A DNA stretch of 14,061 nt from positions 1 through 14,061 of the forward strand of contig JAEXXS010000228.1 in NCBI GenBank assembly GCA_023451915.1, read 5' to 3'. The notes beneath the pieces were generated by a model that did not search any database, was not told the DNA's origin, and worked only from the letters and a program-made list of their open reading frames with translations. A program made the translations under genes and the position numbers. This DNA is from Pseudomonadota bacterium (GTDB lineage: Bacteria > Pseudomonadota > Alphaproteobacteria > Rhizobiales > Rhizobiaceae). Positions 4,034 through 5,106 of the stretch are shown here, piece by piece; the stretch's first letter is position 1; each line of letters opens with the position of its first letter.

Positions 4034-5106
4034 ATGATCGCATTGCCGCAGGACCGGATGGACCAGCTCTTGAAGCGGTTCTCGATGATCGAAAGCCAGA
4101 TGGCCGACAATCCGGATTCGGAAACCTATGTGAAGCTTGCCTCCGAATATTCCGAATTGCAGGAAGTCGTTGGCAAGATTCGCGAATTGAGCGATGCGCG
4201 TGGCGAAGCGAAAGATCTGGCTGCCATGCGCGACGATGCGTCGACCGATGCCGACATGCGCGCCTTGGCCGTCGAGGAATTGCCGGAGGTCGAAAAGCGC
4301 GTCGAGACGCTGGAGCAGGAAGTACAAATCCTGCTTCTGCCCAAGGATGCGGCGGACGAAAAGAACGCCATTCTCGAAATTCGCGCCGGTACAGGTGGGC
4401 TGGAAGCAGCGCTTTTCGCCGGTGATCTTTTCCGCATGTATGAGCGCTATGCCAGCGAAAAGGGCTGGCGCGTTGAGCTGGTCTCGGCCAGCGAAGGCGA
4501 TGCAGGCGGCTATAAGGAAATCATCGCAACGGTGTCCGGCAAGGGCGTGTTCTCGAAGATGAAGTTCGAATCGGGCGTGCATCGTGTGCAGCGCGTACCG
4601 GAAACTGAAGCTGGCGGGCGTATTCATACCTCGGCTGCGACGGTGGCCGTGCTGCCGGAAGCCGAAGACATCGATATCGAGATTCGCAACGAGGATATCC
4701 GCATTGATACGATGCGCGCATCCGGCGCTGGTGGACAGCACGTCAACACGACCGACTCGGCCGTGCGCATCACCCATATCCCCACCGGCATCATGGTGGT
4801 TCAGGCGGAAAAATCCCAGCACCAGAACCGCGCCCGCGCCATGCAGATCCTGCGCGCGCGCCTTTATGACATGGAGCGCCAGAAGGCTGAAAGCGAACGC
4901 TCCGAAGCGCGCCGCAGCCAGGTCGGCTCCGGCGACCGCTCCGAACGCATCCGTACCTATAATTTTCCGCAGGGCCGCGTACGGATCACCGTATCAACCT
5001 GACGCTCTATAAGCTCGACCGCGTGATGGAAGGCGATCTCGACGAACTGGTCGATGCGCTGATTTCCGATCACCAGACGGCGCTTCTGACCGAATTGGGC
5101 GCATGA
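4034..5106 (+). pseudogene. prfA: Peptide chain release factor 1 (RF1), frameshifted near its 3' end
   Basis: RF1 recognises UAA/UAG stop codons and releases the finished peptide. ATG 4034 is preceded by AGGA (4024-4027) and gives the normal N-terminus MIALPQDRMDQLL. The PxT region (RVPETEAGGRIHTS) and the GGQ motif (SGAGGQHVN) are intact. At 4973-4981 the frame reads GRV and then RITVST before a stop at 5000-5002. The RF1 family continues GRVTDHRINLTLY, and exactly that sequence is present in the other frame from 4981, ending TELGA at 5106. One base is therefore missing at about 4980/4981. As sequenced, the product is 322 residues instead of 357 and lacks the last 41 native residues. RF1 is normally essential, so this is a sequencing error, a tolerated truncation or a true defect. 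No -1 slippery heptamer is visible. An in-frame upstream extension from 3965 has no ribosome site and was not used. Confidence 0.9.

What the first reader, a model, noticed from the sequence alone, without database searches (positions are those of the whole stretch)
4973..5106. One-base deletion near the 3' end of the normally essential prfA gene
The frame reads GRV then RITVST and stops at 5002, while the conserved RF1 continuation TDHRINLTLYKLDRV and onwards is present from 4981 in the next frame and ends exactly at the prmC overlap. The last 41 residues are lost from an otherwise intact RF1. There is no slippery heptamer for -1 frameshifting and the site is not a homopolymer. The possibilities are a sequencing or assembly error, a genuine strain-specific truncation, or recoding at an unusual site.
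Basis: partly seen in the sequence, partly recalled or inferred. Interest (0 to 1): 0.75.

Follow-up and report, generated by a model that had tools for sequence, protein, structure and literature searches.

The report
Single-genome frame break in prfA
One letter is missing near the end of the gene for the stop-codon reader RF1 in this genome, and the comparison with its relatives points to a sequencing error or a brand-new mutation, not to a new way of reading genes.

Summary
The window's prfA (4034-5002) runs 316 codons as RF1, gains six foreign residues and stops at 5000-5002. The rest of RF1 (41 codons plus stop, 4981-5106) follows in the next frame. The window comes from an Ochrobactrum-type member of the genus Brucella; its own genome is not held. 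In 35 of 35 held genomes of the genus the site reads in one frame. prfA is uninterrupted in 34 of 35; the exception, G002, is a poorly scoring genome broken elsewhere in the gene. The window's orphaned tail has 0 amino-acid changes and 7 to 10 silent changes against each of the five nearest relatives; its 3 private changes are all silent. So the break is very recent. No slippery heptamer or long homopolymer lies at the site, and the receiving frame opens only at 4963. Most likely it is a one-base consensus error; second, a fresh truncating mutation, perhaps at a short imperfect inverted repeat; recoding is very unlikely. Reads would decide; none are available here.

The parts
4034..5002 (+). 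prfA as it reads in the window: RF1 residues 1-316, six foreign residues, TGA
   Evidence: NCBIfam prfA TIGR00019 444 bits against cut-off 423, profile matched only to 319 of 361
4979..4981 (+). place of the frame break (window one base shorter than relatives)
4981..5106 (+). orphaned prfA tail in the next frame, 41 codons and stop, unchanged in protein sequence against the five nearest relatives
4980..4993 (+). 5-bp perfect inverted repeat with a 4-base loop at the break; no such stem (5 or more, loop 3-8) at this site in 35 of 35 genus genomes
   Evidence: 8% of window junctions lie inside such an arm by background
5103..5975 (+). prmC (RF N5-glutamine methyltransferase), intact; the ATG at 5103 is CTG in the five nearest relatives, so the start may lie downstream

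Best explanation
The break is a one-base error in the consensus sequence of this genome. The living strain most likely carries an ordinary intact prfA, like its relatives. Shown: the break, its absence from the relatives examined, and the protein-level constancy of the orphaned tail. Inferred: that the missing base is an error of reading and not of the cell.
For: Site in frame in 35 of 35 genus genomes; prfA uninterrupted in 34 of 35, the exception being G002, at 85% completeness and 7% contamination, broken elsewhere in prfA. Tail: 0 nonsynonymous and 7-10 synonymous codon differences in 42 codons (stop included) against each of the five nearest relatives; 3 window-private substitutions, all silent in the tail's own frame. 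The truncation removes DHRINLTLYKLD, which is identical in the 15 full-length RF1s that I chose for alignment from the 120 listed. UAG is in use as a stop: 3 of the 8 window genes listed (ptsP, the L,D-transpeptidase-like and the M23-like gene) end in TAG, and ptsP ends in TAG in 5 of 5 nearest relatives. RF1 is essential in E. [quoted passage not shown]
Against: The site is not a homopolymer; PMC12007338 (passages) says deletion errors in the long-read assembly it studied mostly follow homopolymers, with a small incidence elsewhere. The rest of the window is clean: six of six other genes compared run full length or all but one residue against five relatives. The break lies in or at the edge of an arm of a short inverted repeat, a context in which real mutations arise. 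The tail's constancy fits a fresh mutation equally well. The sequencing technology is unknown.
Confidence: 0.7

Rival explanations
1. A real, very recent frameshift in this strain or culture: RF1 lacks its last 41 residues, is probably weak or dead, and RF2 carries UAA/UGA termination while UAG is terminated poorly. A template switch in a short imperfect inverted repeat could have made it. Ribosomes would also stop about 100 bases short of prmC, which might lower its translation (inference).
For: Non-homopolymer site and otherwise clean window. The window has a perfect 5-bp inverted repeat (4-base loop) at the break, which 0 of 35 relatives have at this site; quasipalindromes are mutation hotspots by template switching (PMC7202029, search listing only). 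RF1 can be dispensable where RF2 is strong (PMC5373646, passages).
Against: 8% of junctions in the window lie in such an arm (stem 5 or more, loop 3-8), and the repeat was noticed after the fact. The break is inside the arm if placed at 4980/4981, but not if placed at 4979/4980, and there is no stem of 6 or more there. UAG stops are in use. None of the 35 genus genomes has the break.
Confidence: 0.25
2. Recoding: ribosomes shift frame by -1 (or +2) near 4963-4999 and make full-length RF1, an autoregulatory counterpart to the known prfB frameshift.
For: The tail is conserved and intact.
Against: No X XXY YYZ heptamer in 4900-5002; receiving frame blocked by a stop at 4960. Local RNA fold no more stable than shuffles (z 0.30). 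The conserved tail is equally expected from a very recent break. 0 of 35 relatives share the arrangement, so no history of it is seen.
Confidence: 0.02

Closest known systems
Peptide chain release factor 1 (prfA; NCBIfam TIGR00019, NF001859)
   Same: 316 residues with PCRF and RF-1 domains and the GGQ motif, same place beside prmC
   Different: Last 41 residues are out of frame in this one sequence
Programmed frameshift of prfB (RF2); its +1 direction is recalled, an internal UGA frameshift is mentioned in PMC5373646 (passages)
   Same: Release-factor gene whose full product would need a frame change
   Different: Needs the opposite shift, lies at the 3' end, has no shift site and no conservation
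Gene-fragmenting indel errors in long-read assemblies (PMC12007338, passages)
   Same: Isolated one-base indel in a conserved gene, detected by comparison with relatives
   Different: Not after a homopolymer; read type unknown

Membership tests
Intact bacterial RF1 | Full-length match to the RF1 equivalog profile | tested here: not met
   Score passes the cut-off but the match to TIGR00019 ends at 319 of 361
Intact bacterial RF1 | PCRF domain and GGQ-containing RF-1 domain | tested here: met
Programmed ribosomal frameshift | Slippery heptamer where both frames are open | tested here: not met
   4900-5002; only the X XXY YYZ form was scanned for
Programmed ribosomal frameshift | Conservation of the two-frame arrangement in relatives | tested here: not met
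   0 of 35 genus genomes
Old pseudogene | Relaxed constraint after the break | tested here: not met
   0 nonsynonymous differences in the tail against five nearest relatives
Assembly error | Reads disagree with the consensus | not testable with these tools
   No reads; own assembly not held

The most novel reading that the evidence does not exclude
A living Ochrobactrum-type strain grows with a genuinely truncated RF1, made by a template switch at a short inverted repeat, so that UAG termination rests on a damaged RF1 or on RF2.
Probability: 0.15. Interest if true: 0.5.

Novelty: not a real feature. Interest (0 to 1): 0.12.

Why it matters
If real, it would be a natural test of how far a bacterium with ordinary UAG usage tolerates RF1 loss. 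More likely it is a caution: a clean-looking window can still carry a one-base error in a core gene, and comparison with relatives shows this quickly.

Tried and rejected
Search of the window's own genome was not possible, so a second prfA copy, prfB variants and the genome-wide rate of frame breaks could not be checked. Protein search: 8000 candidates were scored and the best 120 listed; of those 120 none is a copy of the truncated form, and the shortest is 326 aa (P0115, 82% identity, on a 3.2-kb contig). Because that database is clustered at 90% identity, this is weak evidence. Structure prediction gave low confidence both for an intact relative's RF1 (P0007, mean pLDDT 56.6) and for the truncated product (63.8); I draw nothing from either, including the higher value for the truncated form. 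No fold search was run on them. Rfam: no match in the window at the gathering threshold. Inverted repeats of 14 or more in 5976-6486: none. RNA fold of 4960-5060: unremarkable. Paper searches: Brucella with release factor 1, frameshift and pseudogene, 0 papers; prfA, RF1, C-terminal truncation, release factor, 1 paper; Brucella, prfA, release factor, essential, 7 papers; release factor, RF1, domain 4, crystal structure, PrmC, 0 papers; Ochrobactrum, release factor 1, prfA, 1 paper. Judged by their listings none reports a broken prfA in this genus; I did not open them. An old-pseudogene reading was rejected. Classical Brucella as source was judged unlikely because six Brucella-labelled RF1 entries (among them B. 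melitensis, B. ovis, B. suis, B. abortus, B. ceti) are 95-96% identical to the window's product, while the nearest Ochrobactrum-type relatives reach 98.7-99.7% over residues 1-316.

Full report
What is there. The window carries, in order, lysC (50-1324), ptsP (1668-3938), prfA (from 4034), prmC (5103-5975), a gene I call DUF4167 from recall (6486-7301; no NCBIfam match), clpB, an L,D-transpeptidase-like gene and, on the other strand, an M23 endopeptidase-like gene (the last two match their families below the curated cut-offs, and ptsP misses the cut-off of its best family but passes that of TIGR01417). prfA reads as RF1 for 316 codons, then six foreign residues, then TGA at 5000-5002. The rest of RF1, 41 codons and a stop, lies at 4981-5106 in the next frame. 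One of its supports is weaker than it looks: the prmC ATG at 5103, with which the tail's stop overlaps, is CTG in 5 of 5 nearest relatives, so the prmC start may lie a little downstream.

Where it comes from. The window's own assembly is not held. A scan of named genomes with the prmC product returned 17 loci, of which five at 89-93% protein identity are Ochrobactrum teleogrylli, Ochrobactrum sp. Q0168, isolate AFS001111, Ochrobactrum sp. RH2CCR150 and Brucella haematophila. Over about 11.9 kb, aligned in one or two pieces, the window is 92-93% identical to them in DNA. It is thus an Ochrobactrum-type member of the genus Brucella as now drawn; classical Brucella entries are less similar in RF1. 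Because the genus contains listed pathogens, I kept the two pieces of the gene apart and mended nothing.

Comparison. Thirty-five genomes of the genus are held and were searched, and I examined prfA in all 35. In 34 of 35 it is one uninterrupted frame with 41 or 43 residues after position 316. The exception, G002 (85% complete, 7% contamination), is broken at another place, between residues 287 and 297. At the window's own site 35 of 35 read in one frame. In a wider alignment, which includes Bartonella and other records, 65 of the 67 loci then held aligned to the site, several of them from the same genomes; 65 of 65 are one base longer than the window over 4962-5010. Over the whole aligned stretch the net difference is one base in 59 rows, 0 in 2 (G018), -1 in 2 (G002) and 7 in 2 (L033, L034), which have other indels.

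Age of the break. Each piece was compared in its own frame with nine of the relatives. Against the five nearest, the tail has 7, 9, 9, 10 and 8 silent and 0 amino-acid-changing codon differences in 42 codons, stop included. Against four more distant ones, with 39-40 codons aligned, it has 9-11 silent and 0, 1, 1 and 0 changing differences. Three substitutions in the tail are private to the window against the five nearest; all are silent in the tail's own frame. One of them is the base that makes the prmC ATG at 5103. Three is a small number, but with the rest it puts the break late on the window's own branch. This fits an error and a fresh mutation equally.

Quality of the neighbourhood. Six of six other genes compared (lysC, ptsP, prmC, DUF4167, clpB, L,D-transpeptidase-like) match five relatives full length, in one hit each; in L025 clpB is matched over 871 of 872 residues, and in L023 the L,D-transpeptidase-like gene runs to the edge of the locus. 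DNA alignment with the five nearest shows the prfA base as the only uncompensated coding indel; the others are intergenic, upstream of or directly at the clpB start, or compensated within a few bases. The M23-like gene was not compared this way. The window is not generally error-ridden, which is a point against a poor assembly.

Mechanism. The shift needed is -1 or +2. The receiving frame has stops up to 4960 and opens at 4963; no X XXY YYZ heptamer lies in 4900-5002; the only run of 5 or more equal bases in prfA is at 4809. The local RNA is not unusually structured (z 0.30). Programmed recoding is therefore unsupported. In the window the break lies at a perfect 5-bp inverted repeat with a 4-base loop (4980-4993); in 35 of 35 relatives no stem of 5 or more with a loop of 3-8 is found in this stretch. 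That is what a template switch at an imperfect inverted repeat would leave, a route known in E. coli (PMC7202029, seen in the search listing only). But 8% of all junctions in the window lie in such an arm (2% with a loop of exactly 4), the break is inside the arm only if placed at 4980/4981 and not at 4979/4980, and no stem of 6 or more is there. This is a lead, noticed after the fact, and not proof.

Consequence if real. The lost segment includes DHRINLTLYKLD, identical in 15 full-length RF1s that I chose from the 120 listed; an intact relative's RF1 (P0007) aligns through it with solved RF1 chains. UAG is in use: three of the eight window genes listed end in TAG, and ptsP does so in 5 of 5 nearest relatives. 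RF1 is essential in E. coli K-12 but dispensable with the RF2-B variant (PMC5373646, passages). A truncated RF1 would thus probably be harmful without being certainly lethal (inference). Structure predictions were of too low confidence to add anything.

Verdict. The most likely cause is a one-base consensus error (0.70); then a fresh real truncation (0.25); recoding 0.02. The main point against an error is that the site is not a homopolymer: PMC12007338 (passages) reports that deletion errors in the assembly it studied mostly follow homopolymers. Raw reads would decide.

Noticed in passing
L013 (G002), prfA and ptsP: prfA of this relative is also interrupted, at a different place (between residues 287 and 297); the genome scores 85% complete with 7% contamination, and the alignment also shows a one-base gap in its ptsP. 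G007 (69% complete) shows two one-base gaps in ptsP.
   Followed up: partly
window 5103-5105: The prmC ATG is private to the window; the five nearest relatives have CTG there, so prmC may use an unusual start or begin downstream, for example at a GTG at 5109.
   Followed up: partly
window 4980-4993: Perfect 5-bp inverted repeat with 4-base loop at the break, not found at this site in 35 of 35 relatives.
   Followed up: yes
window 7319-7504: The mechanical clpB ORF starts at a TTG at 7319, but the ClpB profile and the alignment with relatives point to the ATG at 7502.
   Followed up: partly
P0027 and L034: An RF1 87% identical to the window's and similar to Pseudochrobactrum entries is labelled Bacillus subtilis, and a MAG labelled Candidatus Kuenenia carries an alphaproteobacterial-looking prfA-prmC stretch; both look like mislabelled or contaminated records.
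   Followed up: no
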